Below the pieces are notes generated by a model that was given only the letters and a program-made list of their open reading frames with translations, ran no database searches and was not told the DNA's origin. Source: Flavobacteriales bacterium (lineage in GTDB: Bacteria; Bacteroidota; Bacteroidia; Flavobacteriales_E; Vicingaceae). From it: DNA of 64,000 nt. Both the position numbers and the translations under genes were made by a program. The DNA is taken from NCBI GenBank assembly GCA_015075325.1, contig JABTUP010000002.1, forward strand, positions 62,001 through 126,000. The letters are read 5' to 3'. Below, one piece after another: positions 33,999 to 58,325 of this stretch; position 1 is the stretch's first letter, and every line of letters begins with the position of its first letter.

Positions 33999-34072
33999 GT
34001 TAAACAGACTGCAACTTCTCGTAACTATATAAACAATTTACCTCTTCAAACCTTTTCATCTCCTTTTGAAGT

Positions 34073-34096
34073 AAAAGCAAAAGACTGCTTTTTTTG
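34073..34096 (+). terminator. Candidate terminator after cyoE-DUF420
   Basis: AAAAGCA (34073-34079) and TGCTTTT (34086-34092) form a 7-bp stem with a six-base loop, followed by a T-run. It ends the cyoE operon before the four-gene cluster. Confidence 0.55.
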
Positions 34097-34151
34097 TGTA
34101 ATAAAAGCTATTACAAAGTTGTTGTGAACTAATTCTAAAAAATTAGAACAT

Positions 34152-34168
34152 TATATTTGCTATATTTG
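34152..34168 (+). promoter_or_regulatory. Two tandem TATATTTG elements upstream of the four-gene operon
   Basis: TATATTTG occurs at 34152-34159 and again at 34161-34168, both exact TAnnTTTG matches, 54-70 bases before the ATG at 34222. They are the best promoter candidates for the putative defence operon. A clear -33 box was not located, so which copy is used is unknown. Confidence 0.45.
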
Positions 34169-34221
34169 ACCTGAATAGAACAAAATTTTTTTATTTTAAA
34201 AAACCACAACAATAGTTTTAA

Positions 34222-36198
34222 ATGCAAATTACACACAAATTAGATGATTTTCTATTTACCATTTTCCCTGAACTGACAGGGGGGGGTAATGAGCTTATAA
34301 TCAATGTATTAGAGAGATTTTACACTTATGGCCCTTACAAGCCAAAAGTTTCAATTGAAGACAATTGGGTAAAAATTGAAATAGACACACCAACAATAAT
34401 TTCACAAGACGGTGACTACAAAAAAGTTATTGCACTTTGTGAAAAAGGAAAATATTCTGAAGCAAAACCAATCTTAAAAAATCTCATAAGCAAGAATCCG
34501 ACAATATCAGAGTATCACCGAATAATGGGACAAATACTATCTGATGAAGGTGACCAAGAAGAAGCTATAAATTGCTTGATTGATGCTTTACGTTGGGATT
34601 CAAAAAACGGTTGGGCATTGTTAATGATGGGGAACATCTTTGCTAAGTTCAAAGATGATGTTCCTACTGCAATGAAGTATTATGACCAAGCACTTGTTGC
34701 AAATCCCAATGACAATATTACGATCAATAATATTGGTGCAAACTTAATGCAACAAGGCAAACTGGAAGAAGCCAAAAAATACTTTTGGGAAGCAATCAGG
34801 ATTAATGACAAATATCCAAACACACATTTTGCACTAGGAATGATTGCGGAAATGGAAGCAGACTTTCAGTCTGCTTTTTACAGCACAATTCAGGCAATAA
34901 AATTGAATAAGAACAAGGATGTTCTATATCAAAACTCGGTAAGACAAGCATTCGAAATTGCAAAAAAGATAATTGCAACAGATGCTGGAAAGAAGATTTA
35001 TCGTGAATACAGGCACAAACTAGAATTTGAAGGAGACAGAAGAATTGATATAGTTCAAGACGAAGAAATACCAACCGCTGCAAAGTTTGAATTTGCAGAG
35101 AATTACGAAAGAGACGTTCATATTGTAAGATATAAATCAAGCTATCCAGCAGTAGAACATCTTATCATGCACGAGTTAGTTCATCTTGATTTTGTAATTC
35201 AAGCAAGAAAGGACGATTTAAATCAATTGTTCATATCCAATCAAAGTCATAAGACACAATTTATAACAGGACTTGAGCCTACAATCAAGAAATTTAATAA
35301 AATGGGTATTCCTGAAAAGTCAATTGCAGAATACTGCTCAAACCTTTTCGATGGAATGAATCGTCAAATCTTTAACACTCCAATTGACTTATTTATAGAG
35401 CAATTTTTATTTAATGAATTTCCCGATTTACGACCTTATCAGTTTTTATCTCTTTACGCCATGTTACAAGAAAGTTTGCAGGCAGTAACAGACAAGAAGA
35501 TAGTTGAACTTTCACCAAAAGAAATTATTTCAAAAAGCAAAGTATACAACCTTGTAAATGCTCTTCAGTTCAAAGAACTTTTCGGATTTGATTTTATCAA
35601 GGAGTTTAATGCTACACCAATTGAGTTAAAACAAGCTAATGACTTTTACAATGAGTATTTACAATACAAAGATGACAAAGAACCAGCCGAAGAATATGAA
35701 TTAGTACTACATTGGGCAGAAGACCTAAAACTAGATAAAAATTTTGAACTCGTAAACGAAAAAGAATTCAGAACAAAGCGAACAAACATCGACAGTATTT
35801 TATCCGAAATAGAAAAAGATCCTTACGACTTAGAATCCAAAGGCCTTTATAAGAAGAGGGAAATGGAGAAATTTCAAAAGTCACAAGAAAGTATCGGAAC
35901 CAACATGGCTGTTGTTATGTTAATGGTTGATGCACTCCAGTTTTTTGAAGGAATGCCAAAAGAAGAAATCAAGAAAATAGCTTTTGAAATTGCTATACAA
36001 GGCACACAAGGCTACAGACCTGAAAAAGACAATTACAATATCAGCTCAATTAAAGGGAAAACCTTTTCAGGCTACCACATTTTAGCCTATTACTATGTTA
36101 GTTGGGCTTTGGCAATTCCCGAGATGCTTTCACAATTACAACTGCCATATGATGATGAATACAAACTGGCTTTAACCATGCATAAACCTAACAAGTAA
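34222..36198 (+). CDS. TPR protein with HExxH metallopeptidase motif (defence operon gene 1)
   Basis: A 658-residue soluble protein without signal peptide. Residues about 75-235 hold four to five TPR units (NPTISEYHRIMGQILSDEGD, NGWALLMMGNIFAKFKDDVP, NDNITINNIGANLMQQGKLE, YPNTHFALGMIAEMEADFQS). A predicted peptidase-like part follows with H317-E318-L-V-H321 in LIMHELVHLDFV, a zinc-binding HExxH motif; a third ligand may be a Glu in TPIDLFIEQFLFNEFPDLRP, but that is a guess. The C-terminal third is helical and unassigned. A G8 tract (34279-34286) encodes residues 20-22. Its stop overlaps the MazG-like start by one base. It could sense infection and cleave a partner, or be a toxic protease; function is inferred only from fold and context. 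Confidence 0.8.
   Translation: MQITHKLDDFLFTIFPELTGGGNELIINVLERFYTYGPYKPKVSIEDNWVKIEIDTPTIISQDGDYKKVIALCEKGKYSEAKPILKNLISKNPTISEYHRIMGQILSDEGDQEEAINCLIDALRWDSKNGWALLMMGNIFAKFKDDVPTAMKYYDQALVANPNDNITINNIGANLMQQGKLEEAKKYFWEAIRINDKYPNTHFALGMIAEMEADFQSAFYSTIQAIKLNKNKDVLYQNSVRQAFEIAKKIIATDAGKKIYREYRHKLEFEGDRRIDIVQDEEIPTAAKFEFAENYERDVHIVRYKSSYPAVEHLIMHELVHLDFVIQARKDDLNQLFISNQSHKTQFITGLEPTIKKFNKMGIPEKSIAEYCSNLFDGMNRQIFNTPIDLFIEQFLFNEFPDLRPYQFLSLYAMLQESLQAVTDKKIVELSPKEIISKSKVYNLVNALQFKELFGFDFIKEFNATPIELKQANDFYNEYLQYKDDKEPAEEYELVLHWAEDLKLDKNFELVNEKEFRTKRTNIDSILSEIEKDPYDLESKGLYKKREMEKFQKSQESIGTNMAVVMLMVDALQFFEGMPKEEIKKIAFEIAIQGTQGYRPEKDNYNISSIKGKTFSGYHILAYYYVSWALAIPEMLSQLQLPYDDEYKLALTMHKPNK
34279..34286 (+). 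repeat. G8 homopolymer near the 5' end of the operon's first gene
   Basis: Eight Gs in an AT-rich gene, after codon 19. With eight the frame is open. With seven the reading becomes GTA ATG AGC TTA TAA, a stop within five codons; with nine TAA follows directly. This is the layout of a slipped-strand switch. Whether the length varies in the population is not known. Confidence 0.9.
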
Positions 36199-36527
36199 TG
36201 AAGGAAAACAAAGAAATAATTGAAGCACTTTTAAAATTCGGAAATGAAAGAGATTGGGAGCAATTCCACAATCCAAAAGATTTAGCACTTGCAATTAATG
36301 TTGAAGCGGGAGAATTGCTTGAACTATTTTTATGGAAAAGCCCTGAAGAAGCAAACAAGGAGAAAGTAAAAGAAGAATTAGCCGACATTTTTGCTTTTGC
36401 TTTTCTTTTGGCTGAAAAGTATCACTTTAATGTGAAAGAAATTGTGCTTGAGAAAATTCAACAGAACGCTAAGAAATACCCCGTTGAAAAGGCAAAAGGG
36501 ACAGCAAAAAAATATAATGAGTTATGA
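36198..36527 (+). CDS. MazG-like nucleotide pyrophosphohydrolase (defence operon gene 2)
   Basis: A 109-residue all-alpha NTP pyrophosphatase of the MazG/dCTPase-like superfamily. The metal-binding motif pair ExxE...ExxD is seen as E36-x-x-E39 (EAGELLELFLW) and E60-x-x-D63 (KEELADIFAFAFLLAEKY). Members hydrolyse (d)NTPs or modified nucleotides to monophosphates, and MazG proteins can also act on (p)ppGpp. The start overlaps the upstream stop by one base (TAATG) and its end overlaps the McrB-like gene by four (ATGA), so it is an integral part of the operon. In a defence setting it may lower nucleotide pools or remove modified phage nucleotides; that is inference. Confidence 0.9.
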   Translation: MKENKEIIEALLKFGNERDWEQFHNPKDLALAINVEAGELLELFLWKSPEEANKEKVKEELADIFAFAFLLAEKYHFNVKEIVLEKIQQNAKKYPVEKAKGTAKKYNEL

Positions 36528-38152
36528 ACGAACAAGTATTAATATATACAATTTCAGAGTCAGCAAGTTCTAATGCAGAGCTATTATTTAATGGCGAAAA
36601 ATACTTTTACTGGAACAATGAAAAATTCAAGAATCTAGTAGTTGGGGATTATGTTTTTATTGTCAATCGAACACATAAGTATGTTCTTTTTACAAAATTT
36701 GACAAAGAAAATATCCAAACCAGAATTAATAGGACAACAAACAAAACAGCATTCAGTGATGAAGGGATAAGTTTTGAAGTTGATGGAACAGAGTCTAACA
36801 ACTCTCCTTGGGATGTTTTTGTTAGGTTTTCAATTATTAATAAATTAATGATTCCTGATAATTGGGAATGGACAAATCTCGGTGCTGGTGGAACTACATA
36901 TTTAAATGGGGATAGAATAAATACAAGTGCATATGAAAACAGACTAAAGAATATCAGTCAATTATTACAATTATCTCAAGACGAGACTATAACTCAAATA
37001 CTCGAAAATTGTAGACTAAACTTTAATGGAAGCACAACTAAGCCCACACCTATAAAACCAATTCAAAAAACCAAAGAAAACAAACAGGATGACATGAATA
37101 TACTAACAGCCATAAAAACTAAACCTTTTATTCTTTTAGCCGGAATATCGGGAACTGGAAAGTCAAGATTGGTAAGAACTCTTGCCTACAAAACTTGCAG
37201 CAAGGATGAATTAAGAAACGACCCTAAAAAGCCTGGGAATTTTGAATTAATTCCTGTGCGACCAAATTGGCATGACTCATCGGAACTCATGGGATACGTG
37301 AGTAGAATCAATGGCGAAAAATATATCACAACTTCTTTTTTGAAATTCATAGCAAAAGCATGGAAACATACAGATGTGCCGTTTTTTCTTTGTCTTGACG
37401 AAATGAATCTTGCCCCTGTAGAGCAATACTTTGCAGAGTATTTAAGCATCATTGAAACACGACAAGTCAAAAATAGGGTGCTAGTCACCGATTATATCAT
37501 ATCAAAAGAAAGTTTTGAAAATCAAAATCTCTATACCCAGTTATTAAAAGATTTAGAACTTGACGAAAGAGAATTCTCAGAAGGTATTAGTATTCCAAGC
37601 AATCTTATTGTCATCGGAACTGTAAACATGGACGAAACGACCCATTCTTTTAGTAGAAAAGTTCTTGATAGAGCAATGACTTTTGAAATGAATAATGTTG
37701 ATCTATCTGCTGGCTTAGATTTACAAAAAAACGATTGGAGTTATCCTGAGTCTTTTATTTCTAAAGAAGATGTAATTGGAATGTATACATCAGGTGCTGA
37801 AGTGTATTCTAAAACATTTAAGGAGAAAGATGAAGTAATCAGTTTCCTAACAAAAATAAATACTGAACTTGAAGGAACGCCTTTCAAAATTGCATATCGT
37901 GTTAGAGATGAGTTTTTAATATACTGTTATTACGCAAGTTTGAACGCATCAACAAATTGGTTGACAAATGCTTTAGATGAAATGGCAAGTATGAAAATAT
38001 TATCAAGAATTGAAGGAGATGAAACTAAAACTGGTAATGTCCTTAAAAACCTACAAAAGATACTCCATGCCGACTATAAAAAGTCAAATGCCAAACTGAA
38101 AGAAATGGAGTCACGCCTTCAGTCAAACGGATACACATCATTCTGGTCATAA
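36524..38152 (+). CDS. McrB-like AAA+ NTPase with EVE/PUA-like N-terminus (defence operon gene 3)
   Basis: A 542-residue protein. The N-terminal 120 residues (FYWNNEKFKNLVVGDYVFIV and on) look like an EVE/PUA-type fold that could bind a modified base; this is a weak, by-eye call. The AAA+ domain of the McrB type starts at Walker A G207-x-SGTGKS (K213), Walker B is LCLDEMNLAPVE with D292/E293, and the McrB signature N368-M-D370 (GTVNMDETTHSFSRKVLDRA) follows. McrB-type motors use GTP to drive DNA translocation towards their McrC nuclease partner. The next gene, overlapping by one base, encodes such a partner. Linkage to MazG and a TPR-metallopeptidase is unusual. Confidence 0.9.
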   Translation: MNEQVLIYTISESASSNAELLFNGEKYFYWNNEKFKNLVVGDYVFIVNRTHKYVLFTKFDKENIQTRINRTTNKTAFSDEGISFEVDGTESNNSPWDVFVRFSIINKLMIPDNWEWTNLGAGGTTYLNGDRINTSAYENRLKNISQLLQLSQDETITQILENCRLNFNGSTTKPTPIKPIQKTKENKQDDMNILTAIKTKPFILLAGISGTGKSRLVRTLAYKTCSKDELRNDPKKPGNFELIPVRPNWHDSSELMGYVSRINGEKYITTSFLKFIAKAWKHTDVPFFLCLDEMNLAPVEQYFAEYLSIIETRQVKNRVLVTDYIISKESFENQNLYTQLLKDLELDEREFSEGISIPSNLIVIGTVNMDETTHSFSRKVLDRAMTFEMNNVDLSAGLDLQKNDWSYPESFISKEDVIGMYTSGAEVYSKTFKEKDEVISFLTKINTELEGTPFKIAYRVRDEFLIYCYYASLNASTNWLTNALDEMASMKILSRIEGDETKTGNVLKNLQKILHADYKKSNAKLKEMESRLQSNGYTSFWS

Positions 38153-40380
38153 TGCAAGTAATAAAAGTAGAACATACAGACTTTACGTTGGTTGTTGAAT
38201 GCAATAACCTTGTACCTACTTTTGAAAAAGCAAGAAAAAAACAATCTGAAATTTATAATGCAACAACTTACTCGGTTAATCAAGGGGAAATTTCCATTTA
38301 TAATTTTGAATCGCACCAATTAGAAAAACTTTCAACTGTTAAAACCTATCCATTAATATTTGAAAACAAGGATTATTTTGTAGGTATCACCTTCAAAGAT
38401 AAAACTTCAATAAAATCGCCTTATATTTATTCAAAATTAAAAGAAGTAGAAGAGAAATTTTTCTATCGTGAAGAATTAGGATTCCTTGCAGGAACAATAA
38501 ACTTTGGCAATGATCTTGGTAAGAGCAATTTAATCTTAAAATACTTAAAGGATAATTCACTTCAGGAAATCAACTTTGAATTTGAAGTATTTCCCACCAA
38601 ACTAAATTACAAGAGCGATTACGAAAAAATAGTTTCAGATATCGAAAAGGAATATCCTTATCTCGTTCTTGACTTTTTAAAGAAAACATTCACGACTTTT
38701 AAAACTGGAAACTCACCTAACACTGATTTAATTTGGTGGCAAGTATTTGGTGGTCTTTATAAAGATTTCATTAATTCCTCAAAATTTATTTTAAATAAAC
38801 CACACAGCCGAATTATAAGGCAAACTAAATATGTAAAGGCTGATAGAATTCAGAAGTGGACTTCTGCTTTAGAAGAAGAATATTCTCAGTTTAACACATT
38901 TCCCAATAAGAATTACCGTTCGGAATATAAAACACTAAGCACAAACACATCCGAAAATCGTTTTTTTAAACATGCAGTTTTTCAAACACTTAGGCGGTAT
39001 AAAAAGGTAAAATCATTTGTAGATAGGCGTTTTTCAAATTCAATAAGCGATAATTTCAAATCTGAACTTTCCAACATTGAGAAACAACTTGAAATAATTT
39101 CTGTAAATCCGTTTTTCAGAACTATAGACGACTTCCAAGGCATCAAACAAGAATCGCTTGTTTTGCAGAAAGCAACTGGTTACAGCACAATCTATAAATC
39201 ATGGATAATGATGAATAGTGGTCTGAAATTTTTAGATAGCATACAGAAAATTGAACTTAAAAATATCGCTGATCTTTATCAGATTTGGTGTTTCTTGGAA
39301 ATAAAGAATGTTTTACAAAAACTATTAGGCAAAGAAAATCCTGATGATATTGATTTAGCAGAAATCCAAATAGACGACTTTGTTTTCAAAATCGAACGTG
39401 GTGTAAAATCAAAAGTCTCTTTTAATAAATCTGATGGAGAAATCATTGACTTGTTTCATGACTTTTCTTATGACACTTCTGAAAGCCAACTTGTAAAGTC
39501 GTTTACTGTTAACCAACGACCTGATATTGTTCTCAGAATTACAAAAAATGATTTGAAGGAAAATTATGTTCTCACCTATTTATATGATGCAAAATACAGA
39601 TTAGCTTCTGACGAGAAGGATGGATCTCCAGACCTTCCAACAGAAGATTCCATTAATCAAATGCACCGATATAGAGATGCGATTTACTATGTAAACAAAG
39701 ACAAATCTAAACCTGAAAAGGAAGTTATCGGGGCATACATACTTTTCCCTGGTTCAGGTGAAATCGAAACTATCAAAAAACTCGACTATTACAAATCGAT
39801 TGAATCAGTAAACATTGGTGCTTTTCCATTAAGACCTAATGATTATTCAAACAGAACGCTTTTAGAAGACCATTTAAGAACAATAATCGGACTTGACACA
39901 GAAACAATATTAAATGACGTTTCACCTCAGAAACTAACAACTTATGAAAATCATAATCCAGAAGTTCTCATTGGCATTGTAAATAAAGGAAATCAAACTG
40001 AATACTTCGAAAAAGAAAATAATCTTTTCTATCACACAGGAAAAGTTAAGCCTGCCAAACTGAAAGACGAAGACTCTGGATATGTAAAAATTAAAACTGA
40101 CATTAAATATTTTGCTCCATACTTCTCAGGTAAAGGAGTAAAAGAATATTACGATATTGTTGACTTTAGAATAATACCAAGAAATGAAGTATTTCCTACT
40201 GGTCATTCATTGGATAAACCTTATGATAAAAGTGACAGGCTTATTATTACTCTTGGCAAAAAACATATTATCAAAGAAAATCGATATTTCACATGCTCTA
40301 TAACTGTTTACAGATATACTACTCTGAAAAATATAAGAAATCCAAAAGAAAATAAGATTGAAGTTTTAAAAGTAAGTTAG
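38152..40380 (+). CDS. McrC-like DUF2357 / PD-(D/E)xK nuclease (defence operon gene 4)
   Basis: A 742-residue protein. The N-terminal half is a DUF2357 domain: GTINFGNDLGKSNLILKYL and FEVFPTKLNYKSDYEKIVSD are hallmarks. Helical linkers follow, then a PD-(D/E)xK nuclease core at about 450-490 with D458 (NQRPDIVLRI) and D479-A-K481 (YLYDAKYRL). After that comes INQMHRYRDAIYY, typical of McrC-like nucleases, and a C-terminal extension of about 170 residues (600-742) with EVE/PUA- or SH3-like strands of unknown role. It should cut DNA when driven by the McrB-like partner just upstream. Length is above that of classical McrC (about 350), as expected for the DUF2357 subfamily. Confidence 0.88.
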   Translation: MQVIKVEHTDFTLVVECNNLVPTFEKARKKQSEIYNATTYSVNQGEISIYNFESHQLEKLSTVKTYPLIFENKDYFVGITFKDKTSIKSPYIYSKLKEVEEKFFYREELGFLAGTINFGNDLGKSNLILKYLKDNSLQEINFEFEVFPTKLNYKSDYEKIVSDIEKEYPYLVLDFLKKTFTTFKTGNSPNTDLIWWQVFGGLYKDFINSSKFILNKPHSRIIRQTKYVKADRIQKWTSALEEEYSQFNTFPNKNYRSEYKTLSTNTSENRFFKHAVFQTLRRYKKVKSFVDRRFSNSISDNFKSELSNIEKQLEIISVNPFFRTIDDFQGIKQESLVLQKATGYSTIYKSWIMMNSGLKFLDSIQKIELKNIADLYQIWCFLEIKNVLQKLLGKENPDDIDLAEIQIDDFVFKIERGVKSKVSFNKSDGEIIDLFHDFSYDTSESQLVKSFTVNQRPDIVLRITKNDLKENYVLTYLYDAKYRLASDEKDGSPDLPTEDSINQMHRYRDAIYYVNKDKSKPEKEVIGAYILFPGSGEIETIKKLDYYKSIESVNIGAFPLRPNDYSNRTLLEDHLRTIIGLDTETILNDVSPQKLTTYENHNPEVLIGIVNKGNQTEYFEKENNLFYHTGKVKPAKLKDEDSGYVKIKTDIKYFAPYFSGKGVKEYYDIVDFRIIPRNEVFPTGHSLDKPYDKSDRLIITLGKKHIIKENRYFTCSITVYRYTTLKNIRNPKENKIEVLKVS

Positions 40381-40430
40381 GTTATAGTAAGAATATTACC
40401 AATTATATTTCAGTATTATTTATAAAGAAA

Positions 40431-41378
40431 TCAATGCTTATCTAACGTCAAGCTTGTTCTATCGCCAGTATAAAAGGTGTATTGGTACTGAATAATTTGA
40501 ATAAATTCGGTTTCAATATCTTGTATGAGTTGAGCAGTTAGCAGATAGGTTTTTTTGTCGTACAAAAACTGCTTAGATGTTTTGTATCTATCATTTTGAT
40601 ACACTTTTATTTCCAACAAATTATCCAGCTCGTCATACAAAAAAACTTCGCTCTCTTGGTCGTTGGTGCTAAGGTTTGCAAAATGAATAATTTTGCCAAC
40701 ACGCCCTTTTTCGTCGTACTCGTATTGTACTTTCGATTTTTTGTTGCCAATAATGTAACGCGAATAAATTTCTCTTAAATAACCCAATTCATTAAAATAG
40801 AAAAACTCCTCGCGATAAACTTTGTTGTATTTGTTGTAATACAATTTCTTGTATTGCAATTCTCCTTGTTTTTCGTACGAAAAGCTGTCGGTATTAATGG
40901 TGTATTGTTTTGCTAAATCAAAATCGGCTTTGTAGTCGCAGTAGTTTTCGTCTCTACAATAGGTTTGATTAATTACTTGATTTGAATCGTCGTATTTAAA
41001 ATGGTTTGAAAAATAGCCATAACTATCGCTTTTCCGAATTGTAGTCAGTTGATTTTTTTCGTTGTAGTAATAAATAATAATATTCGTGTCTTTTTTTTCT
41101 ACCTGGTTATGGTAAGTTGACATTTGTTTGGTTAAAAACCCTCTTTCGTTAAATTCGTAATAATAATCCAAGCCTTTGGTTCTAATAATGTCTTTAACTT
41201 TTTTGCTTGAACGCGAACCAGTAATTAACTTAATACCATTTTGTTGAATAAAACGGGTGTTAAAGAATGGTTCTTCTGAAAAAACAGGCTTGTTGATGTC
41301 TAATATTTGTGAGAGTCCAACTTGAGAAGACAGCAAAAACAACATTAAACCAATGATGCGGAGTTCTAAAAATAGCAT
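40431..41378 (-). CDS. Exported YD/RHS-like repeat protein
   Basis: I place the start at ATG 41378, giving 315 residues that begin MLFLELRIIGLMLFLLSSQVGLSQ, a signal peptide. The frame stays open to a further ATG at 41507, but that would read through a terminator hairpin and lack a signal peptide. The mature protein holds a series of short Tyr- and Asn/Asp-rich beta-hairpin repeats (YYEFNERGFLTKQMS, YYYNEKNQLTTIRKSD, YEYDEKGRVGKIIHF, FLYDELDNLLEIKVY), like isolated YD repeats. No enzyme motif seen. Probably a periplasmic or surface protein. It converges with the putative defence operon, 50 bp away, and is not an obvious part of it. Confidence 0.8.
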   Translation of the reverse strand: MLFLELRIIGLMLFLLSSQVGLSQILDINKPVFSEEPFFNTRFIQQNGIKLITGSRSSKKVKDIIRTKGLDYYYEFNERGFLTKQMSTYHNQVEKKDTNIIIYYYNEKNQLTTIRKSDSYGYFSNHFKYDDSNQVINQTYCRDENYCDYKADFDLAKQYTINTDSFSYEKQGELQYKKLYYNKYNKVYREEFFYFNELGYLREIYSRYIIGNKKSKVQYEYDEKGRVGKIIHFANLSTNDQESEVFLYDELDNLLEIKVYQNDRYKTSKQFLYDKKTYLLTAQLIQDIETEFIQIIQYQYTFYTGDRTSLTLDKH

Positions 41379-47893: not shown

Positions 47894-50800
47894 TTATCTT
47901 AGAACTGTTAATGGACCAGTAAATGGTTTTGTTTTACCATCATTTAATTCAATAACATAGTAATACGTTCCAACTGGTAAATTCTCTCCGTTGTATGTTC
48001 CATTCCAATCGTTTTTATAAGCTGTTGAGCGATACAATAACTCTCCCCAACGGTTATAAATTTCTACTGCATGATTTGGATATTGATCAATATAATCAAT
48101 TACCCAAGTATCGTTTTTACCATCACCATTTGGTGTAATACCATCTGGGAATCGAATGGTAGGAATTACAGTTACAGTAACACTATCAATTGAAGTACAA
48201 CCTTCTGGAGAAGTAACAGTAACGGCATAAGTTGTAGTTTCTAATGGATTTGCAATTGGGTTTGATATTGTTGTATCACTTAATCCTTCAGAAGGAGTCC
48301 ATGTATAGCTAACACTACCTGTTGCACCAAGTTGAATGCTAGTTCCTTCTACAATAGTTACGTCAATACCTGCATTTGCAATTGGTTGAGGGTTGTAAGT
48401 AATACAAACAGTATCTGAACCAATACAAGCACCAAATGCTGTATAAACATAGCAAATTGTTCCTGCTACATTTGAACTAACAATTACACTATTGGTGTTT
48501 CCAATCAATGTCATAGCTGGTAAAGCAAACCATTGAACACTTGTTACATTTCCATCGGTGCTTCCTGTTAACATTACCGAATTATCTTCACAAACTGATG
48601 TATCATTACCAGCAAAAGCTAAAACAGTATCTAAAGACCCTACATTAACCGTTTGCAATATACTACAACCACTATTATCGGTAATTGTTACTTGGTAACT
48701 ACCAAAACATAAATTTGTTGCAGTACTGTTAACTTGTCCGCTTGGATTCCAATTGAAAGAATAACCTCCATTGCCTCCACTTACGGTTAAAGTAGCTTGT
48801 CCATCGCAAACACTACTACAACTTGCATCGGTTACTGAAACTGAAGCGGTAATTAATGTTGGTTCTGTTATTACTGCACTATCCTGAACACTACATCCAT
48901 TTGCATCAGTAACGGTTACTAAATAAGTTCCAGAAGCTAAATTAGAGATGGAATCATTTACTCCGCCTGGAGTCCAAACTGCTGTATTATAAGGAGCTGA
49001 ACCACCTATTGGATGAACAACTGCCCAACCATCATTTAATCCATTACATGTTACATTTGAAGAAGCAATATTTGCCATTAATACTGCTGGGTTAACTATA
49101 GTATCAATTGCAACACCAACACATCCTGCTGAATCGGTAACATTTAGCGTATAAACATCAGAACAAAGATTATTAATAGATGAACCAAATAAGTTGTTTG
49201 GTGTAGCATTTGGCGACCAAACATAAGTGTAAGGAGCAACTCCTCCTATAGGATTTGCCGAAATTACACCATCACACAAACTATTACAAGTTGGATTAGT
49301 AACAGTGGTATTTGGATCAGGAGCATTGGTATTGCTTAGTGCAAATACAAAATTATTTGTACAACCTTTGTTATCAGTAATATCAACGGTATAAACACCT
49401 GCACACAAGTTAATAACAGTGGCCGTATTTTGAGGAGCTAATGGGAAATCCCATGCAAATTGATAAGGACCTGCTCCTCCTGTTGGGTTTAATTGGATTT
49501 GTCCGTTACAAACATTACAAGCAGGACTTATTAAATTCTCGTTGGCTAAAATTTCAGTTGGCTCTGATAAGATTAAAGTATCTGTTGCAGTACATCCTCC
49601 TGCATCAGTAACTTCAACCCAATATGTTCCTGCACATAACCCTGAAATTACTTGAGTTGTTTGACCGTTACTCCATAAATAAGTATATGGTGCAGTTCCT
49701 CCAAGAGGTGAAGCAATTAATCGACCATCACACGCTGCATTACAAGAAATTTGATTCTGAATATTAATATTTACATCAATTACATCAGGAGAAATAATTA
49801 CAGTACTTATTGAATCTCTACAATTCATGCTGTCTGTAACTACAGCAATATAATTTCCAGCACATAAATTGGTTGCCACATCATTATTTCCTCCTGATGG
49901 ATTCCATTGGTAAGTAAATGGTGAAGTTCCTGCTCCAACAACAACTGTTGCACTTCCATCGCAAGCATTAAAGCAACTTTCAGGTATTACATCTATAATT
50001 GATAAATCTAATCCTGAATTTAGAATAGAAATAGTATCTATTGTAATGCAATTAAGCGCATCTGTTACAGTAACTGTGTAAGTATTAGCACATAAACCTG
50101 TTGCTAATGAATCTGTTCCTCCTACTGGAGACCAAGAATACGAATATGGTAAATTACCATTAGAAGCTGATAAAAGAGCTGTTCCATCACAAGAGCCCAC
50201 ACAAGTTTCATCGGTTTTAGTAATTACTAAATCAGGTCCATTAGCACTGTTTACAATTACATTAAAATCATAAATACAACCAGTTCCTAAATCAGTAATT
50301 TGAAGTGTAATTATTCCAGCACATAATCCAGTAGTTGTGGTTTGAGTATTGTCTCCATTACCCCATAAATAAGCATAAGGACCAGCACCACCAACTGGAT
50401 TTGCTGTTGCAGAACCATTGCAAACTCCACAATCTGGACCAACAACAGTTGTACTATCATTAAGTGCTGAAGGTTCATTAACTGTTAAAGTATCGTATGC
50501 AGTACATCCGTTTGCATCTACTACTACAACATTATAAGTTCCAACTGTTAATCCATTGGCTGTTTGTCCTGTTTGAACTGGTGTTGTACTCCAGATATAA
50601 GTATAAGGTGCAACGCCGCCAACTGGGTTTGTTGTAATGCTACCGCTATTTTGTCCATTACAGTTTGCATCAGTAACAACAGATGAAGTTGAAAGAACAT
50701 CAGGACTAACAACCGAAATAGTATCTGAGATAATACAACCTCTACTATCTGTTACTGTTAATGTATACAGACCTGCACAAAGGGTGGTTGCTAATGAATT

Positions 50801-53800
50801 GTTTTGGGTAGGAGTTGTATTCCAAGAATAATTATATGGAGGCGTTCCACCATTTACAATACCTAAAGCTGTTGCATCACAATCACTATTACAAGTTGTT
50901 GAAGTTGACGAAAGTGATAAATTAAGTACAGTTGGAGAGTTTATAGTAAAGTTGTGAGTAATCTGACAACCATTATCATCGGTTATTGTTACTGAATGAT
51001 TTCCTACACATAGGTTTGTAGCTGTTAACCCAACATCTCCATTACTCCAATTTATAGTATAAGAACCTACGCCACCTGTAGGAGAAACCGTAGCTGTAGC
51101 ATCACATACTCCTGAACAACTAATTGGTGTTGTGGTTAAATTTGGTAAAATAGCTTCTGGTTCAAAAACTCTAATAGAGTCAACTGAAATACAGCCTAAA
51201 CTATCTTGAACAACAACATTATACAAACCAGCACATAAAGCAGTAGCCGTATCATTTGATTGTAATAAAATATCATCCCATTGATAAATAAATGGTGAAG
51301 TTCCTGATACTATTTCTGTTTGAGCAGAACCATCACATGATTCAAAACATGAAGTGCTATCTGCTGAACTTAACAAATCAGGACCATTTGGATTACTAAT
51401 AAGAACAGTAAAAGTTTGAGTACAACCAAAAACATTTGTAACTTCAACATCGTATGCTCCAGGACATAAGTTGTTAACTGTTTGTGTTGTTTGACCTGTT
51501 GGTAACCATAAATAAGTATAAGGTCCAGAACCCACTCCTACATTTATTGTTGCAGAACCATCGCAAACCCCACATGCAGCGTCAGATGTAGTAAATGTAG
51601 CAGTTAGATCATTTCCACTAAAGATAGTAACATTATCTGTTGCTGAACAACCATGAACATCTGTTACAGTAACTGAATAACCACCCGAACCTAATCCAGC
51701 AATAGTAGGAGTTGTTAACCCATTTGACCATAAATAAGTATATGGAGCAGTTCCTCCAGCAGGTGTTGCTGTTGCAGAACCGTCGTTTTGACCAAAACAA
51801 GTTAAATTGTTTGCTGATGCTGTAACGCTTAATACATTAGATTCGTTAATTACAACATTTATAGGTGATGAACATCCTAAAGCATCTGAAACAGTTACAA
51901 TATAATTTCCTGCACATAACCCTGCAACCGCATTATTATTTGGTGCGACACATGGTCCAGACCATGAATACGAATATGGTGGAACACCTCCTGAAGGTAC
52001 AACTGTTGCTGAACCATTATTTCCTCCATTACAAGTTACATCATTTGTATTTACAGTTGCTGTTATTAAAGCATTTTCTCCAATAGTTACAGGTGTTACA
52101 GTAATACAACCGTTTCCATCAGTTACTTGAACAGTATAATTATCAGCACATAAACCAGAAACTGCTGAAGTGGTTTGTCCTGTAATTCCAGTACCAGTCC
52201 ATAAATAAGTATAATTTGGAGTTCCTGAAACAATGGCAACCGAAGCAGAACCATCACAAGAGCCATTACATGAAGCATCGGTTGTTGAAACATTAACAAC
52301 TGGTCCGTTTGCATTGTTTATTGGAATTAAAAAGGATTGCATACAACCATTAGCATCTGTTATCTCAACTGTGTATGTTCCTGCTGACAGTCCTGTTACA
52401 TTAGGAACACTTACTCCTAAAGCTGGCCAGAAATATGTATAACCTCCAGCACCACCGGTTGGATTAACAACAGCTGTTCCATCATTACTTCCACAAGTTG
52501 CATCAGTAGTTGTTTCGTTAGCAACAATTAATGTATTTTCATTAATGGTAACAACATCATTTGTTGAACAACCATTAACATCTGTTACAGTAACATTGTA
52601 TGTTCCTGCTGTTAGACCTGTTGCGGTAGGTGTTGTTTGAAATAATGGATCATCCCATTGGAAGGTATAAGGTGCTGTGCCATTAGCTGGAGTAACTGTA
52701 GCTGTTCCATCATTTCCTCCATTACAACTTACATCTGTAGAACTTGTGATAACTGTTAAAACATTTGGACTTGTAATGTCAAAATTAACAACATTTGTAC
52801 AACCATTAAAATCGGTAATAGTAACGCTTGTTGGCCCTACACATAAATTAGAAACTGAAGCCGAAGTTTGTCCGTTTGCCCATAAGAAGGTATATGGTGC
52901 TGTCCCTCCAGATGGAGTAACACTTGCCGTTCCATCGCATGTTCCACTACAAGAAACTGGAGTAAAAGATGGATTTGCAGTAATACTATCAGACTCCCCA
53001 ATGATAACAAATGTATTGAGAACACAATTTGCGGCATCAGTAATTGTTAGGTTGTATGTTCCCGCACATTGTCCAGTAATTGTTGAATCTGTTTGACCTG
53101 GAACATTCCAATTATAAGTATAACCAGGTGTTCCACCTATCGGGATAACATTAGCAGCTCCATCACAAGCACCAAAACAGGTAGCATCTATTACTGTTGT
53201 TACCACACCAGTTGGGCCAGCAGGATTACTTACTGCAAAAGTAAAAACCTCTGAACATCCGTTATTATCAGTAATGGTATCAGAATAAAAACCAGCGGGC
53301 AAATTAGTGATGTTATCTAAAATTGAACCGTTGCTCCAAGAATGAGTATAAGTTGGAGTTCCCCCTGATGGATTAACTGTAATTGAACCATCACTTGCTC
53401 CACAACCTGCATCAATAATTACTTCGTTTGCTAAAATTAAAGCAGGCTCATCAATAGTAACCGAACCATTGAAGAAACAACCATTACTATCTATAACATT
53501 AACTGAATAAACTCCAGGAATTAAATTATTGATTGAAGCAGTTGTTGTTGGTATTGGTAAATTACCACCAACCCATGAAATAGAATAAGGAGCTGTTCCT
53601 CCAATTGGAGTAACCATAGCCGTTCCATCATTCAATCCATTACATGTAATATTTGTACTATCTAAAGTAACTTGTAGAACAGCTACATCACTAACGGTGT
53701 AACTTCCAATAGTAGTACATCCGTTTGCGTCAGTAATAGTTACATTGTATGTATCAGGACAAAGATTGGAAATTGTTGAATTTGTAGGATTCGTTATCGG

Positions 53801-56800
53801 AGAACCACCTACTGAAGTCCATACATAAGTAAATCCTCCATTTCCACCTGTAGGGGAAGCTGTTGCTGTTCCTGTACAAGCTCCATTACACTCAATAGAG
53901 GTACCTGTTACATTCGCATTAAATTGAGATGGACCTGTAACTGTAATAGTTTGTGTTGTAGAACAACCATTTGCATCGATAGCAATTGCAGAGTATGTTC
54001 CTGGACACAATCCAGTGATTGTATCGGTAGTTAAAGTATTAGACCAAGTAGTAGAATGAGGCTCTGTTCCTCCGCTAACAATAATTCCAGCAATCCCATC
54101 ACAATCTCCAAAACAGTTTTCAGAAACATTATAAGGATTAGATGAAAAAATTGTCGGCTCAACAATATCGAAAGTATCTAATTTCGTACAACCCGTTGTA
54201 TCGGTAATTGTTACTGTATATGTTCCATCACCTAAACTACTAATTGATGAATTTGTTCCAAGTCCACCACCCCACAAGTAAGTGTAGCCTGGTGTTCCTC
54301 CTGAAGGATTTAAAGTTATACTGCCCGTTGTATTACCATTACAATTTACATCAACAACTACTGCATTTGAAACTATTGAATCAGGTTCAGTAATAATTAA
54401 AGTATCGGTTTGACTACATAAATTGGCATCTGTTACTGTAACCCAATAAGTTCCTGGAGCCAAGCCTGTTTGTGGAGTACTTGAATAAGTTAATGTATAA
54501 GGCGGCACACCTCCCGTAGGGTTTGCAGCAATTGTTCCATCGTTTGCCCCATTACAAGTAACATTTGTAGCAACTCCATTTGGAACTAAAACACTAGGGT
54601 CAACAGGCATTGTTACAGACTGTGTTGCTAAACATCCTGTTTGGTCAGTAACCGTTACAGTATAATTTCCAGGGCACAAACCTGTGGCAGTTTGAGTATT
54701 CTGTGTAGGGACTGTATTCCAGCTATAAATATAAGGAAGTACACCTCCAGCAGGATTAGCTGTAGCTTGCCCATCGCACGCTCCATTACAACTAATTCCA
54801 ATAGTGTCTGTAAGAATTGTTATCACTATTGAAGGTGCAATGGTAACTGTTCCATTTCTAGTACAACCATTTGCATCAGTTACTGTAACTGTATAACTTC
54901 CTGGACATAAATTAGCAGCAGTAGTTTGGGTATTATCTCCACTTGTCCATGAAAAAGAATAAGTACCTGGACCTGTTCCTCCTGTTGGATTAGCCGTTGC
55001 TTGTCCATCACAATTGGTTTCACAACTTGTGCTTATTGCGGAAGGATTAACTACAATTAAAGGTGGGTTTATAATGGTTATAGTATCACGTTCTATACAA
55101 CCAGCAGCGTCGGTTACAGTTACAAAGTATTGTCCTGCACTTAATCCAGAAATTGGATTTCCTGGTATTGGAGCTCCTGCTGGAACAGTATTCCAAACAA
55201 TAGTATAACCAGGAGAACCTCCTGAAGGTAATGCTGTTGCTGTTCCGTTATTTGAATTATTACATGTAATATCAGTAAACTGAGTGTTTGCATTTAGTTG
55301 AGTTGGCTCAATGATAGTAACCGTATCTGTTAAAGTGCAAAGAGAATCATCTGTAATTGTTACGATATATGTTCCTGCACAAAGGTTATTTACACTTTGG
55401 GTTGGAGTTGGTGCAGGAGTTGTATTCCAACTGTAAGAATAAGGCGAATTTCCTCCTGATGGATTTGTAGTGGCAGTTCCATTACAAACTCCAAAACAAC
55501 TTAAATCTGTTACAGAACTATTAGTAGTAATTGGTGTTGGTTCATCAATTGTAAAGTTTGACGAAACAATACAACCATTATCATCTCTAATATCTACAGT
55601 ATGATTTCCTGCACATAAATTTGTGATGGTATTACTGATTCCAACAACAGGAATAAAAGCAGCCCCATCCCATGAAACACTATACGGAGCGGTACCCCCA
55701 GAAGGTGTTGCAGTTGCCGTTCCTTCACACAATTGATTACATCTTAAATCTGTATTCGTTACATTAACTGCTAATGAATTAGGCTCATCTATTGTAATAC
55801 TATTACTAACACTACAACCTCCTGCATCAGTTACAGTTACCGTATAAATGTTTGGACATAATCCAAAAATTGAATCAGTACCTTGACCACTTCCTGGAGC
55901 AGGCAACCAGTTGTATGTATAATTTGGTGTGCCACCAGACACACTAACACCACCTGTTCCATCGCAAGCTCCTTTACAAGTTACATCGGTTTGATTCATC
56001 GTTAAAACCATTGGTAAAGGCTCTTGAATTTCTACACTATCAATAGCTACACAAGAATTTGAATCGGTAACCGTAATTACAACAAAACCTTCACAAAGTC
56101 CTGTAGTTGTGGTTTGCGTGTTATCTAAATTTTCCCAATTCCAAGAATAAGGTTGAGTACCTCCTGCAGGATTAGATGTTGCAATACCATCACAAACTCC
56201 TGGACAAGACATATCCTGAATAACTGAAGGATTAGCTACCAATAAATCTGGTTCGGTTATAGTTATCGTATCTTTTATTTCGCACCCTTTACTATCGGTA
56301 ACAGTAACAACACATTGACCTGGGGCTAATCCAAAAATGGTATCTAATACTGAAGCTCCACATGACCAAGCATAAAAATAGGGTGCAGTTCCATTAACTG
56401 GAGTTGTAATGGCTGTTCCGTTATCAGCACCAAAACAAGTAACATTTGTTACTGCTGTTGATGTTAATAAGGTATCTGGCTCTGTAATAACAAAGGTTAG
56501 AACAGTATCACAACCATTTCCATCACTTATTGAATCGGTATAAGTACCTGCACACAAACTTGTTATCGAAGATAGTTGACCTGCATTTAATGTTTCAGAA
56601 AAACCTGTACTCCAATTATGGGTAAAAGGTCCAACTCCTCCTGTTACAACTGTAGCTGATGCTGTTGCATCGCAATAACCTCCACAACTTACATTAATTT
56701 GAGAAGAATCAATTTGCATCTGAAGTACAGATCCAATAACACTTATCGTATCACCTATGCAACCATTTGCATCTGTAACTATTAATGTATCGGTAGAGCC

Positions 56801-58195
56801 AACACACAATCCAGATAAAGAGTTTGTTGTATTACCACTTGGAAGCCAAAAAAATGAATAAGTACCAATTCCTGTTCCACCAGTTGGATTAGAAGTAACA
56901 CTTCCATTACAATAACCGAAACAACTTACATCATCAACAATTATGTTTGCTCTAACGCTATCGGGCTCATTAACAGTGTAAAAAAAAGTAGTATCACACC
57001 CAAAACCATCTTGTACTCTAAGAGAGTAATTACCTGAACATAGATTTGATATTGAACTAAGAGTGTCAGAAGGTAATCCAGGGGACCACTCAAAACTTTC
57101 AGTTCCCAAGTTTGTAACAAAACCAGCAAAATCGATAAAAGCTTCAATTTCTCCATTGCAAACTCCATTGCATGAAGGACTTGTTATTGTTGCTGGCAAA
57201 AACTCTTCAATTCGAGCATGTCCTAATACCGTTGCTTTTGCTAATCTAGTACTTCCGCAATCATCAGTAATAATTGCAGTATATTCAATACCTGGACAAA
57301 TATTAAAAATAGTATCACTACCAGTAGTGATAGGATTTAACCCATCGTCATCTCCATCTGGAGTGCCTGGAGTCCAATTAATATTTACAAATGAACATGT
57401 TGTACTAAAATTTACTATAATCATCCCATCACAAATGTTTCCACAAGAAGCAGTATCTGAAATAATAGAAGTAACACTTACTGCTTTATTTGTATTCTCC
57501 AAGAAGTTACTATTCCCTAACTGGTAAGTTTTAGTTTTAGAAAAATCATAAGTATTTTTCTTGTCATCTACATTCCAACTGTTGTATGCTAAAATTGTAG
57601 ATTTATCAGAAAGTAATATTCTCTTTTGTGCCGAATTAGAAACAAATGAGCCGCACAACACATCGAACCCATTTAAGTCTAATGTTCCACTTATGTGATT
57701 TAGTGAATTTGCATGATTTTGAATTGGACTTGTTAATTTATATGTTCCAGTTCCTTCAAAATAAAAATCTGTTTGCCAAACATACCAACCTAAATGTATG
57801 ATTTCGTTTTTATTACTTTTAAAGTGAATTGATGATTTAATTTGATTATCAAATTCAGAAAAAATCTGAGCTGAACCCAAAATGTTAATATCTGAATTTT
57901 TTGTAGAACTTATTGCAAAATGTTTTTGAGAACTAATATTCAAGTTATTAATTGAAATACTTGAGCCTATTTTAACTTCTGCTTTAGCCTGAGAAAATGA
58001 ATTGTCATCAAAAAAAACATTATCATTTGAGGTTGGAACACCAAAACCTCCTTTACCTCCTGAGGTATTAGACCAATGAGATGCATCATTCCAGTTTCCG
58101 CTGTTTCCAACCCAATAAAAATCGCCTGCAAAAACCTGACTAACAGCCACTAACAAAGAAAATGTTAGTAATAGAAAATATTTTTTGAAATTCAT
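47894..58195 (-). CDS. Giant SprB-like gliding adhesin, T9SS type B
   Basis: A 3433-residue surface protein (start ATG 58195: MNFKKYFLLLTFSLLVAVSQ is a good signal peptide; an upstream in-frame ATG at 58243 lacks one). The first 250 residues hold a WNDASHWS-type surface domain. By eye about 38 SprB repeats of 72-85 residues follow, with consensus T-V-x-C-N-G-x-C-D-G-x-A...GGxxPYxYxW...LCAGTYTVTVTDxxGC. Near the C-terminus come two PKD/Ig-like units and a gliding-motility-associated type B domain (PDGITPNGDGKNDTWVIDYI, VEIYNRWGELLY). SprB is a mobile adhesin on the gliding machinery; the SprF-like gene downstream supports this role. Whether this cell glides is not shown. Cys pairs in each repeat suggest stabilising disulfides. 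Confidence 0.95.
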   Translation of the reverse strand: MNFKKYFLLLTFSLLVAVSQVFAGDFYWVGNSGNWNDASHWSNTSGGKGGFGVPTSNDNVFFDDNSFSQAKAEVKIGSSISINNLNISSQKHFAISSTKNSDINILGSAQIFSEFDNQIKSSIHFKSNKNEIIHLGWYVWQTDFYFEGTGTYKLTSPIQNHANSLNHISGTLDLNGFDVLCGSFVSNSAQKRILLSDKSTILAYNSWNVDDKKNTYDFSKTKTYQLGNSNFLENTNKAVSVTSIISDTASCGNICDGMIIVNFSTTCSFVNINWTPGTPDGDDDGLNPITTGSDTIFNICPGIEYTAIITDDCGSTRLAKATVLGHARIEEFLPATITSPSCNGVCNGEIEAFIDFAGFVTNLGTESFEWSPGLPSDTLSSISNLCSGNYSLRVQDGFGCDTTFFYTVNEPDSVRANIIVDDVSCFGYCNGSVTSNPTGGTGIGTYSFFWLPSGNTTNSLSGLCVGSTDTLIVTDANGCIGDTISVIGSVLQMQIDSSQINVSCGGYCDATASATVVTGGVGPFTHNWSTGFSETLNAGQLSSITSLCAGTYTDSISDGNGCDTVLTFVITEPDTLLTSTAVTNVTCFGADNGTAITTPVNGTAPYFYAWSCGASVLDTIFGLAPGQCVVTVTDSKGCEIKDTITITEPDLLVANPSVIQDMSCPGVCDGIATSNPAGGTQPYSWNWENLDNTQTTTTGLCEGFVVITVTDSNSCVAIDSVEIQEPLPMVLTMNQTDVTCKGACDGTGGVSVSGGTPNYTYNWLPAPGSGQGTDSIFGLCPNIYTVTVTDAGGCSVSNSITIDEPNSLAVNVTNTDLRCNQLCEGTATATPSGGTAPYSVSWDGAAFIPVVGISNTITNLCAGNHTVDIRDDNGCIVSSNFTIDEPTPITTNSSVTDLSCFGVCNGTATTNPSGGNSPYSYSWNTTPAPTPTQSVNNLCAGTYIVTITDDSLCTLTDTVTIIEPTQLNANTQFTDITCNNSNNGTATALPSGGSPGYTIVWNTVPAGAPIPGNPISGLSAGQYFVTVTDAAGCIERDTITIINPPLIVVNPSAISTSCETNCDGQATANPTGGTGPGTYSFSWTSGDNTQTTAANLCPGSYTVTVTDANGCTRNGTVTIAPSIVITILTDTIGISCNGACDGQATANPAGGVLPYIYSWNTVPTQNTQTATGLCPGNYTVTVTDQTGCLATQSVTMPVDPSVLVPNGVATNVTCNGANDGTIAANPTGGVPPYTLTYSSTPQTGLAPGTYWVTVTDANLCSQTDTLIITEPDSIVSNAVVVDVNCNGNTTGSITLNPSGGTPGYTYLWGGGLGTNSSISSLGDGTYTVTITDTTGCTKLDTFDIVEPTIFSSNPYNVSENCFGDCDGIAGIIVSGGTEPHSTTWSNTLTTDTITGLCPGTYSAIAIDANGCSTTQTITVTGPSQFNANVTGTSIECNGACTGTATASPTGGNGGFTYVWTSVGGSPITNPTNSTISNLCPDTYNVTITDANGCTTIGSYTVSDVAVLQVTLDSTNITCNGLNDGTAMVTPIGGTAPYSISWVGGNLPIPTTTASINNLIPGVYSVNVIDSNGCFFNGSVTIDEPALILANEVIIDAGCGASDGSITVNPSGGTPTYTHSWSNGSILDNITNLPAGFYSDTITDNNGCSEVFTFAVSNPAGPTGVVTTVIDATCFGACDGAANVIPIGGTPGYTYNWNVPGQTDSTITGQCAGTYNLTITDAANCVLNTFVIIGESDSITANPSFTPVSCSGTCDGTASVTPSGGTAPYTFLWANGQTSASVSNLCVGPTSVTITDFNGCTNVVNFDITSPNVLTVITSSTDVSCNGGNDGTATVTPANGTAPYTFQWDDPLFQTTPTATGLTAGTYNVTVTDVNGCSTNDVVTINENTLIVANETTTDATCGSNDGTAVVNPTGGAGGYTYFWPALGVSVPNVTGLSAGTYTVEITDANGCMQSFLIPINNANGPVVNVSTTDASCNGSCDGSASVAIVSGTPNYTYLWTGTGITGQTTSAVSGLCADNYTVQVTDGNGCITVTPVTIGENALITATVNTNDVTCNGGNNGSATVVPSGGVPPYSYSWSGPCVAPNNNAVAGLCAGNYIVTVSDALGCSSPINVVINESNVLSVTASANNLTCFGQNDGSATATPAGGTAPYTYLWSNGLTTPTIAGLGSGGYSVTVTDVHGCSATDNVTIFSGNDLTATFTTSDAACGVCDGSATINVGVGSGPYTYLWLPTGQTTQTVNNLCPGAYDVEVTNVFGCTQTFTVLISNPNGPDLLSSADSTSCFESCDGSAQTEIVSGTSPFIYQWDDILLQSNDTATALCAGLYNVVVQDSLGCISVDSIRVFEPEAILPNLTTTPISCSGVCDATATVSPTGGVGSYTINWSNGDVGLTATNLCVGNHSVTITDDNGCQITHNFTINSPTVLNLSLSSTSTTCNSDCDATALGIVNGGTPPYNYSWNTTPTQNNSLATTLCAGLYTLTVTDSRGCIISDTISVVSPDVLSTSSVVTDANCNGQNSGSITTNPVGGVAPYTYIWSTTPVQTGQTANGLTVGTYNVVVVDANGCTAYDTLTVNEPSALNDSTTVVGPDCGVCNGSATANPVGGAGPYAYLWGNGDNTQTTTTGLCAGIITLQITDLGTGCIYDFNVIVNSANGPDLVITKTDETCVGSCDGTALLSASNGNLPYSYSWSPVGGTDSLATGLCANTYTVTVTDALNCITIDTISILNSGLDLSIIDVIPESCFNACDGSATVVVGAGTSPFTYQWNPSGGNNDVATNLCAGNYIAVVTDSMNCRDSISTVIISPDVIDVNINIQNQISCNAACDGRLIASPLGGTAPYTYLWSNGQTTQVISGLCAGTYWVEVTDAGGCTATDTLILSEPTEILANENLISPACNVCNGQIQLNPTGGAGPYQFAWDFPLAPQNTATVINLCAGVYTVDITDNKGCTNNFVFALSNTNAPDPNTTVTNPTCNSLCDGVISANPIGGVAPYTYVWSPNATPNNLFGSSINNLCSDVYTLNVTDSAGCVGVAIDTIVNPAVLMANIASSNVTCNGLNDGWAVVHPIGGSAPYNTAVWTPGGVNDSISNLASGTYLVTVTDANGCSVQDSAVITEPTLITASVSVTDASCSSVCDGQATLTVSGGNGGYSFNWNPSGQVNSTATNLCFGSYQVTITDNSGCSILQTVNVGSLDTVLAFAGNDTSVCEDNSVMLTGSTDGNVTSVQWFALPAMTLIGNTNSVIVSSNVAGTICYVYTAFGACIGSDTVCITYNPQPIANAGIDVTIVEGTSIQLGATGSVSYTWTPSEGLSDTTISNPIANPLETTTYAVTVTSPEGCTSIDSVTVTVIPTIRFPDGITPNGDGKNDTWVIDYIDQYPNHAVEIYNRWGELLYRSTAYKNDWNGTYNGENLPVGTYYYVIELNDGKTKPFTGPLTVLR
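48640..57480 (-). repeat. About 38 tandem SprB repeats with a four-unit higher-order period
   Basis: Units of roughly 220-250 bp encode 72-85 residues each. Five units are a shorter form opening CG-x-x-(D/N)G and ending in SNPxG- or NANG-like, followed by a Pro that starts the next unit. These junctions fall at about 53216, 52305, 51383, 50237 and 49321, spacings of 911, 922, 1146 and 916 bp, i.e. four units (once five). This implies growth by block duplication. Confidence 0.85.
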
Positions 58196-58325
58196 TAACT
58201 GCAATTTATGTTCAAAATACGGATAAGTACGACAATAATACAAAATAAGTTGCTAAAAAATAAATATTTATTCAATTATAAGTATTTTATGCAGACGTAT
58301 TTTTAACAACCTAAGTTGCAAATTG

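What the first reader, a model, noticed from the sequence alone, without database searches (positions are those of the whole stretch)
34222..40380. Four-gene operon TPR-metallopeptidase / MazG / McrB / DUF2357-McrC: candidate new defence system
Seen directly: four genes in line with overlaps of 1, 4 and 1 nt; motifs for HExxH, MazG, McrB-type AAA+ and PD-(D/E)xK. Known: McrB with a DUF2357/McrC-like nuclease is a type IV restriction core against modified DNA, and MazG-like enzymes occur in defence loci. Inference: the first two genes add nucleotide depletion and protease signalling to a McrBC core, giving a composite abortive-infection system. I do not know a named system with this exact set of four.
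Basis: partly seen in the sequence, partly recalled or inferred. Interest (0 to 1): 0.85.

Follow-up and report, generated by a model that had tools for sequence, protein, structure and literature searches.

The report
Restriction operon with portable protease and dCTPase
Four co-transcribed bacterial genes form a DNA-restriction (McrBC-type) operon carrying two interchangeable helper genes, a predicted zinc protease and a dCTP-destroying enzyme; the protease gene is also found beside many unrelated restriction systems, so it looks like an undescribed general accessory of bacterial antiviral defence.

Summary
Four ORFs (34222-40380, overlaps 1, 4, 1 nt) encode a TPR protein with an HExxH...E zincin site, a DCTPP1-like MazG, an McrB-type AAA+ protein (NxD motif) and a DUF2357/PD-(D/E)xK McrC. 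The 6.4 kb cassette is absent from the same site in a sister species. The same order recurs in at least five other genomes.

The four genes are not one fixed system. The TPR-zincin lies beside unrelated restriction systems: of 61 classified loci, 27 have a MazG-linked nuclease-SLFN helicase, 8 McrBC, 8 BREX, 9 type III, 3 type I, 3 type IIG and 3 others. Its tree needs many partner switches. MazG accompanies only partners without their own methyltransferase (35/36 versus 0/25; sign test on independent contrasts p=0.008), and it also occurs with the helicase where the zincin is absent.

Best reading: a type IV-like McrBC core plus two portable accessories. The zincin would act on a phage or host protein, not on a shared partner; MazG would hydrolyse dCTP or C5-modified dCTP. 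Both functions are inferred. "Composite abortive infection" has no direct support. I found no published description of the zincin association. Novelty: new variant of a known kind; the accessory family is the novel part.

The parts
33999..40436 (.). 6.4 kb inserted cassette between the DUF420 gene and an RHS-like/OppA gene pair
   Evidence: Sister species G001 has the empty site: BLASTN blocks end at window 33997 and restart at 40437 with about 3 nt between in G001
34133..34168 (+). putative control region: inverted repeat TTCTAA-N4-TTAGAA followed by two TATATTTG motifs (Bacteroidota -7-like TAnnTTTG)
   Evidence: read directly from sequence; function inferred; Bacteroidota promoter consensus is from my own knowledge
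34222..36198 (+). TPRpep: TPR domain (about residues 56-250) plus zincin-like domain with HExxH and downstream N-x-P-I-D-x-x-I-E
   Evidence: TPR Pfam; AF2 pLDDT 87; TPR fold; invariant residues
35170..35184 (+). HELVH (HExxH) motif, residues 317-321 of TPRpep
35374..35400 (+). NTPIDLFIE, residues 385-393; E393 is the candidate third metal ligand
   Evidence: invariant N385, D389, E393 in 48 sequences; ligand role inferred
36198..36527 (+). MazG-like all-alpha pyrophosphohydrolase of the dCTP pyrophosphatase 1 (DCTPP1) type
   Evidence: Pfam PF12643; PDB match to human/mouse DCTPP1 E=4e-20, with W20, E36, E39, W46, E60, D63 identical in the alignment
36524..38152 (+). McrB-type AAA+ protein: N-terminal domain of unknown family (1-170), Walker A GISGTGKS (207-214), Walker B LDEMN, NxD signature NMD (368-370)
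   Evidence: CoCoNuT paper PMC11090510 for the NxD branch
36524..37033 (+). McrB N-terminal domain, candidate specificity domain
   Evidence: shared by 7 of 8 TPRpep-linked McrBs across two AAA+ lineages, 0 of 10 unlinked McrBs; no Pfam or PDB match; only this genome of 296 has it
38152..40380 (+). McrC: DUF2357 (114-351) plus PD-(D/E)xK nuclease (375-536) with RPD (456) and DAK (479) motifs, and a C-terminal extension

Best explanation
This is a horizontally acquired defence operon built round a two-gene McrBC-type restriction core of the NxD branch. McrB, with an unknown N-terminal domain, would recognise foreign (probably modified) DNA; the McrC DUF2357 domain would dock on the AAA+ ring, and its PD-(D/E)xK domain would cut. 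Two portable accessory genes precede it. MazG is a dCTP pyrophosphatase of the DCTPP1 type; I think it removes C5-modified dCTP (or dCTP), either to starve phages that build modified DNA or to keep modified cytosines out of host DNA, where the nuclease would attack them. TPRpep is a zinc peptidase with a TPR substrate arm. It is shared by BREX, type I, IIG and III, McrBC and SLFN-helicase loci that have no protein in common, so it most likely acts on a phage or host protein outside the core, during or after restriction. Shown: gene order, domains, intact motifs, insertion, recurrence, partner switching, MazG association. Inferred: every catalytic activity, the substrates, and phage defence itself.
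For: ORFs and domains. Recurrent four-gene order. TPRpep beside restriction systems at 61 classified loci; 0 of 43 control loci (unrelated TPR, EVE and DUF420 loci) had such a neighbour, though the reference set came from TPRpep loci. The TPRpep tree needs 22 partner changes for 8 classes. MazG with methyltransferase-less partners 35/36 versus 0/25; 8 of 9 independent contrasts agree, none opposed, p=0.008. MazG pairs with the SLFN helicase even without TPRpep at 12 loci. Human DCTPP1 hydrolyses dCTP and 5-methyl-, 5-formyl- and 5-halo-dCTP (PMC7162842). GIY-YIG nucleases can be type IV enzymes against 5hmC DNA (PMC12923530).
Against: No experiment and no phage data. Modified DNA as the target is not shown for NxD McrBCs or for the SLFN helicases. 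The MazG contrast is driven largely by one co-inherited MazG-helicase pair. The peptidase part has no sequence match to any solved structure and could not be folded alone. Chlorobiaceae carry TPRpep without a recognised restriction system next to it, so it can exist alone. One divergent homologue (L065) has lost the HExxH.
Confidence: 0.55

Rival explanations
1. TPRpep is a controller protease like CapP (partner of CapH) or IrrE/PprI: when DNA damage or infection is sensed it cleaves an HTH repressor and switches on the restriction operon downstream.
For: TPRpep is usually the first gene of unrelated defence operons, the position of CapH+CapP and CapK+CapS (PMC13373217; PMC10904395). An XRE-type HTH gene lies directly upstream in the same direction in 8 of 81 loci, plus a distinct HTH ORF in L080, including close relatives of this operon (L070, L073). 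An inverted repeat lies in front of the window operon, and distant XRE relatives exist elsewhere in this genome.
Against: About nine in ten loci, including this one, have no adjacent HTH gene. No ImmA/IrrE (Peptidase_M78) Pfam match. In L079, L096 and L145 the gene converges on BREX rather than leading it, an odd place for an operon controller.
Confidence: 0.27
2. Composite abortive-infection system: the protease and MazG kill or arrest the infected cell by proteolysis and nucleotide depletion after McrBC fires.
For: Protease and nucleotide-depleting effectors exist in other defence systems (general knowledge); MazG is listed as a predicted but unvalidated defence domain (PMC13092281).
Against: Both genes occur beside ordinary restriction systems that do not need suicide. 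MazG is a stand-alone dCTPase-type enzyme without a sensor domain, and nothing links it to activation.
Confidence: 0.1
3. The operon is a chance assembly in a defence hotspot: TPRpep and MazG are independent genes that share a promoter but no function with McrBC.
For: All three units (TPRpep; MazG; McrBC) occur without the others.
Against: Overlapping stop/start codons and the same order recur in several lineages; partner switching is non-random for MazG; McrB from two AAA+ lineages carries the same rare N-terminal domain only next to TPRpep.
Confidence: 0.08

Closest known systems
McrBC type IV restriction (E. coli K-12 McrB/McrC)
   Same: McrB AAA+ fold (6hz4, Z 16.1), McrC = DUF2357 + PD-(D/E)xK, adjacent overlapping genes
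   Different: NxD instead of NxxD signature, unrelated N-terminal domain, long McrC C-terminal extension, two extra genes upstream
NxD-branch McrBC systems / CoCoNuTs (PMC11090510)
   Same: NxD motif followed by E (NMDE) in McrB of this and all compared loci
   Different: no long coiled coils in the McrB model, no HEPN ribonuclease, active nuclease motifs, no methyltransferase; MazG and the metallopeptidase are not mentioned in that paper
PADLOC candidate PDC-M26A/B
   Same: McrB gene matches PDC-M26A E=4e-45; McrC gene matches PDC-M26B E=1.6e-4
   Different: no model for TPRpep or MazG; candidate only, two-gene
CapH+CapP and other Cap controllers of immune operons (PMC13373217)
   Same: HExxH protease gene at the 5' end of diverse defence operons, sometimes with an HTH gene just before it
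   Different: different sequence family with a large TPR arm; mostly no HTH partner; also convergent placements
M48-family metallopeptidase in the RptR/type I RM/DarTG island of EPEC (PMC12255303)
   Same: Zn metallopeptidase gene accompanying a restriction system
   Different: gene 1 here has no M48 match in Pfam, lies upstream and carries TPRs; any relation untested
Human/mouse DCTPP1 (RS21-C6)
   Same: MazG gene 2 aligns over 98 residues, E=4e-20, with the Trp and acidic residues conserved
   Different: bacterial, operon-borne, next to nucleases
CMoRE/PD-T4-3 (PMC12923530)
   Same: GIY-YIG nuclease against 5hmC DNA, comparable to the GIY-YIG domain of the MazG-linked helicases
   Different: single gene, no helicase, no MazG

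Membership tests
McrBC type IV restriction | McrB AAA+ domain of McrB type | tested here: met
   6hz4/6ut6 Z 16, rmsd 2.8 over 173 residues; Walker A/B and GTVNMD motif
McrBC type IV restriction | McrC with DUF2357 and active PD-(D/E)xK nuclease | tested here: met
   PF09823 4e-47, PF04411 8e-36; RPD and DAK motifs
McrBC type IV restriction | cleavage of modified DNA, GTP hydrolysis | not testable with these tools
   biochemistry needed
McrBC type IV restriction | N-terminal modified-base reader domain | tested here: inconclusive
   N-terminal domain has no Pfam or PDB match and no convincing profile match to EVE
CoCoNuT | NxD GTPase motif | tested here: met
   NMD at residues 368-370
CoCoNuT | long coiled-coil fusion and HEPN or other extra nuclease | tested here: not met
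   no long coil in the McrB model; no HEPN family in any of the four proteins; McrC nuclease motifs intact. McrC itself was not modelled
DCTPP1-type MazG | sequence similarity with conserved acidic and Trp residues | tested here: met
   A4; that these are the DCTPP1 metal and base-binding residues is from my own knowledge
DCTPP1-type MazG | hydrolysis of dCTP and C5-modified dCTP | not testable with these tools
   enzyme assay needed
CapP/IrrE (ImmA-like) controller protease | Peptidase_M78/ImmA-IrrE domain | tested here: not met
   no such Pfam match in gene 1; HExxH alone is present
CapP/IrrE (ImmA-like) controller protease | adjacent HTH repressor gene | tested here: not met
   none next to the window gene; present in 8 of 81 relatives, plus a distinct HTH ORF in L080
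Known named defence system with these four genes | PADLOC model set covering all four genes | tested here: not met
   only PDC-M26A/B for the last two genes; literature searches found no such set

The most novel reading that the evidence does not exclude
The TPR-zincin defines an undescribed, general accessory of DNA-restriction defence: one protease family that attaches itself to BREX, type I, IIG, III and type IV systems lacking any common protein, acting on a shared third target (phage anti-restriction protein or host factor). In the methyltransferase-free versions a dCTP pyrophosphatase takes over self-protection by keeping modified cytosine nucleotides out of host DNA, in place of the methylation used by the other systems.
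Probability: 0.3. Interest if true: 0.82.

Novelty: new variant of a known kind. Interest (0 to 1): 0.6.

Why it matters
If the zincin is a working part of defence, one protease family serves restriction systems that share nothing else. That points to a common step after, or beside, DNA cutting that is not yet known, and it gives a search handle for unannotated defence loci. If MazG sanitises modified dCTP, it would be a second solution to self-recognition for nucleases that lack a protective methyltransferase, testable with one enzyme assay and one plaque assay.

Tried and rejected
First TPRpep search with the whole protein gave only TPR noise; the C-terminal part was used afterwards. Hypothesis that the four genes form one fixed system: rejected by partner switching. 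Hypothesis that the McrB N-terminal domain is an EVE domain: profile comparison gave 0.7% probability, so not supported. Phage collections: one Microcystis record and one partial IMG/VR contig only, so this is not a phage gene family. Sigma-70-type promoter scan found no excess over shuffles. GC content of the cassette does not stand out.
Full report
Observation. Gene 1 has TPR repeats and, in its second half, HELVH at residues 317-321 and NTPIDLFIE at 385-393; Pfam knows no domain there. Gene 2 is MazG-like (PF12643). Gene 3 is an McrB-type AAA+ protein. Gene 4 is DUF2357 plus PDDEXK_7. PADLOC gives the candidate PDC-M26A for gene 3 (4e-45) and a weak PDC-M26B match for gene 4 (1.6e-4), and nothing for gene 2.

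Mobility. The nearest congener (G001) has the same neighbours without the cassette: BLASTN blocks end at window 33997 and restart at 40437, with about 3 nt between them in G001. So 6.4 kb was gained here or lost there; the sparse distribution in the phylum (TPRpep C-terminal part in 18 of 296 Bacteroidota genomes) favours gain. Copies lie on plasmids of Hymenobacter canadensis (mobilizable) and Marivirga.

The set is modular. A scan of 84,980 species genomes with an alignment of the TPRpep C-terminal part gave 80 loci. Family scans of the genes beside them and similarity annotation give 61 classified loci: SLFN-g3 (DUF2075-type) helicase with MazG 27; McrBC 8; T5orf172 protein with MazG 1; BREX 8; type III 9; type I 3; type IIG 3; Eco57I-type methyltransferase/SNF2 or SspC-like 2. 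TPRpep-MazG-McrB-McrC occurs in L070, L073, L082, L112 and L119 and, with one extra ORF, in L080; L076 lacks MazG. Most of the remaining loci are contig ends or Chlorobiaceae, where TPRpep stands without a recognised system. Controls: 0 of 43 loci of other TPR, EVE or DUF420 genes had such a neighbour, against 5 of 11 TPRpep loci from the pattern-free search; the reference proteins came from TPRpep loci, so this control is indicative only. On a tree of 49 TPRpep sequences the partner classes need 22 changes (shuffled mean 25.3); the window's own closest relatives include a type I-linked copy.

MazG. It aligns to human and mouse DCTPP1 (E=4e-20) with the key Trp and acidic positions kept. Human DCTPP1 hydrolyses dCTP and 5-methyl-, 5-formyl- and 5-halo-dCTP (PMC7162842). 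This genome has no second copy at E<0.001. Among TPRpep loci MazG is present with 35 of 36 partners that lack a methyltransferase and with 0 of 25 that have one. Relatedness inflates that, but nine independent contrasts on supported branches give 8 agreeing, 0 opposed, p=0.008. In a separate search of 296 genomes, MazG sits directly before the SLFN helicase without TPRpep at 12 loci. Those helicases carry either a GIY-YIG domain or an N-terminal stretch with a PD-(D/E)xK-like ELKQW motif. Close McrBC relatives without TPRpep have no MazG.

McrBC core. Structure search of the McrB model returns E. coli McrBC first (Z 16.1, rmsd 2.8, 173 aligned). The signature is NxD, followed by E, in this and every compared locus, which places it in the NxD branch described in PMC11090510; that paper states no NxD McrB has been characterised and does not mention MazG or a metallopeptidase. 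The first 170 residues form a domain without Pfam or PDB match, found in 7 of 8 TPRpep-linked McrBs across two AAA+ lineages about 41% identical, and in 0 of 10 others.

TPRpep. The AF2 model is good (pLDDT 87). R100, H313, H317, E318, H321, N385, D389, E393 and E491 are invariant in 48 sequences, which argues for a working metal site; one seed pattern of the scan was the HExxH itself, so loss could be under-sampled, and L065 has lost it. Since its neighbours share no protein, a direct protein partner common to all is unlikely. I therefore favour a third target. [quoted passage not shown] An XRE gene lies just before TPRpep in 8 of 81 loci, including close relatives L070 and L073, and L080 has a distinct HTH ORF, but not here.

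Verdict. The operon is real, mobile and recurrent. It is best filed as a new variant of McrBC-type restriction with two portable accessories; the accessory behaviour of the TPR-zincin, and the link of a dCTP pyrophosphatase to methyltransferase-free nucleases, are the parts I could not find described. All functions are inferred from sequence. The abortive-infection claim is not supported by anything I could test.

Noticed in passing
L216-L226, L228 (Bacteroidota genomes): MazG directly upstream of an SLFN-g3 helicase with GIY-YIG or PD-(D/E)xK-like N-terminus, without TPRpep: a recurrent two-gene unit that PADLOC does not name.
   Followed up: partly
L066:6449-6667, L068:5036-5224 and fragments in L067, L069 (Chlorobiaceae): Several Chlorobiaceae genomes hold short remnants of only the last 40-60 residues of TPRpep at other places, one between umuDC and a DNA methyltransferase/Vsr pair; full copies are often next to umuDC-like genes.
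   Followed up: partly
L152 (PP438423.1, Microcystis phage Mwe-JY31): A record deposited as a 22 kb phage carries TPRpep-MazG-SLFN helicase and a ParA gene, all but ParA annotated as hypothetical; it may be a plasmid or island rather than a phage.
   Followed up: no
L103:11277-20334: TPRpep followed by a DrmD-like helicase, an N6/N4 methyltransferase and a type III restriction subunit: a hybrid of DISARM-like and type III parts.
   Followed up: no
L082, L113, L119, L128 and others: Some MazG proteins carry an extra N-terminal part of about 90-100 residues of unknown kind.
   Followed up: no
window 47894-58243, - strand: A 3449-residue open reading frame next to the region, not examined.
   Followed up: no
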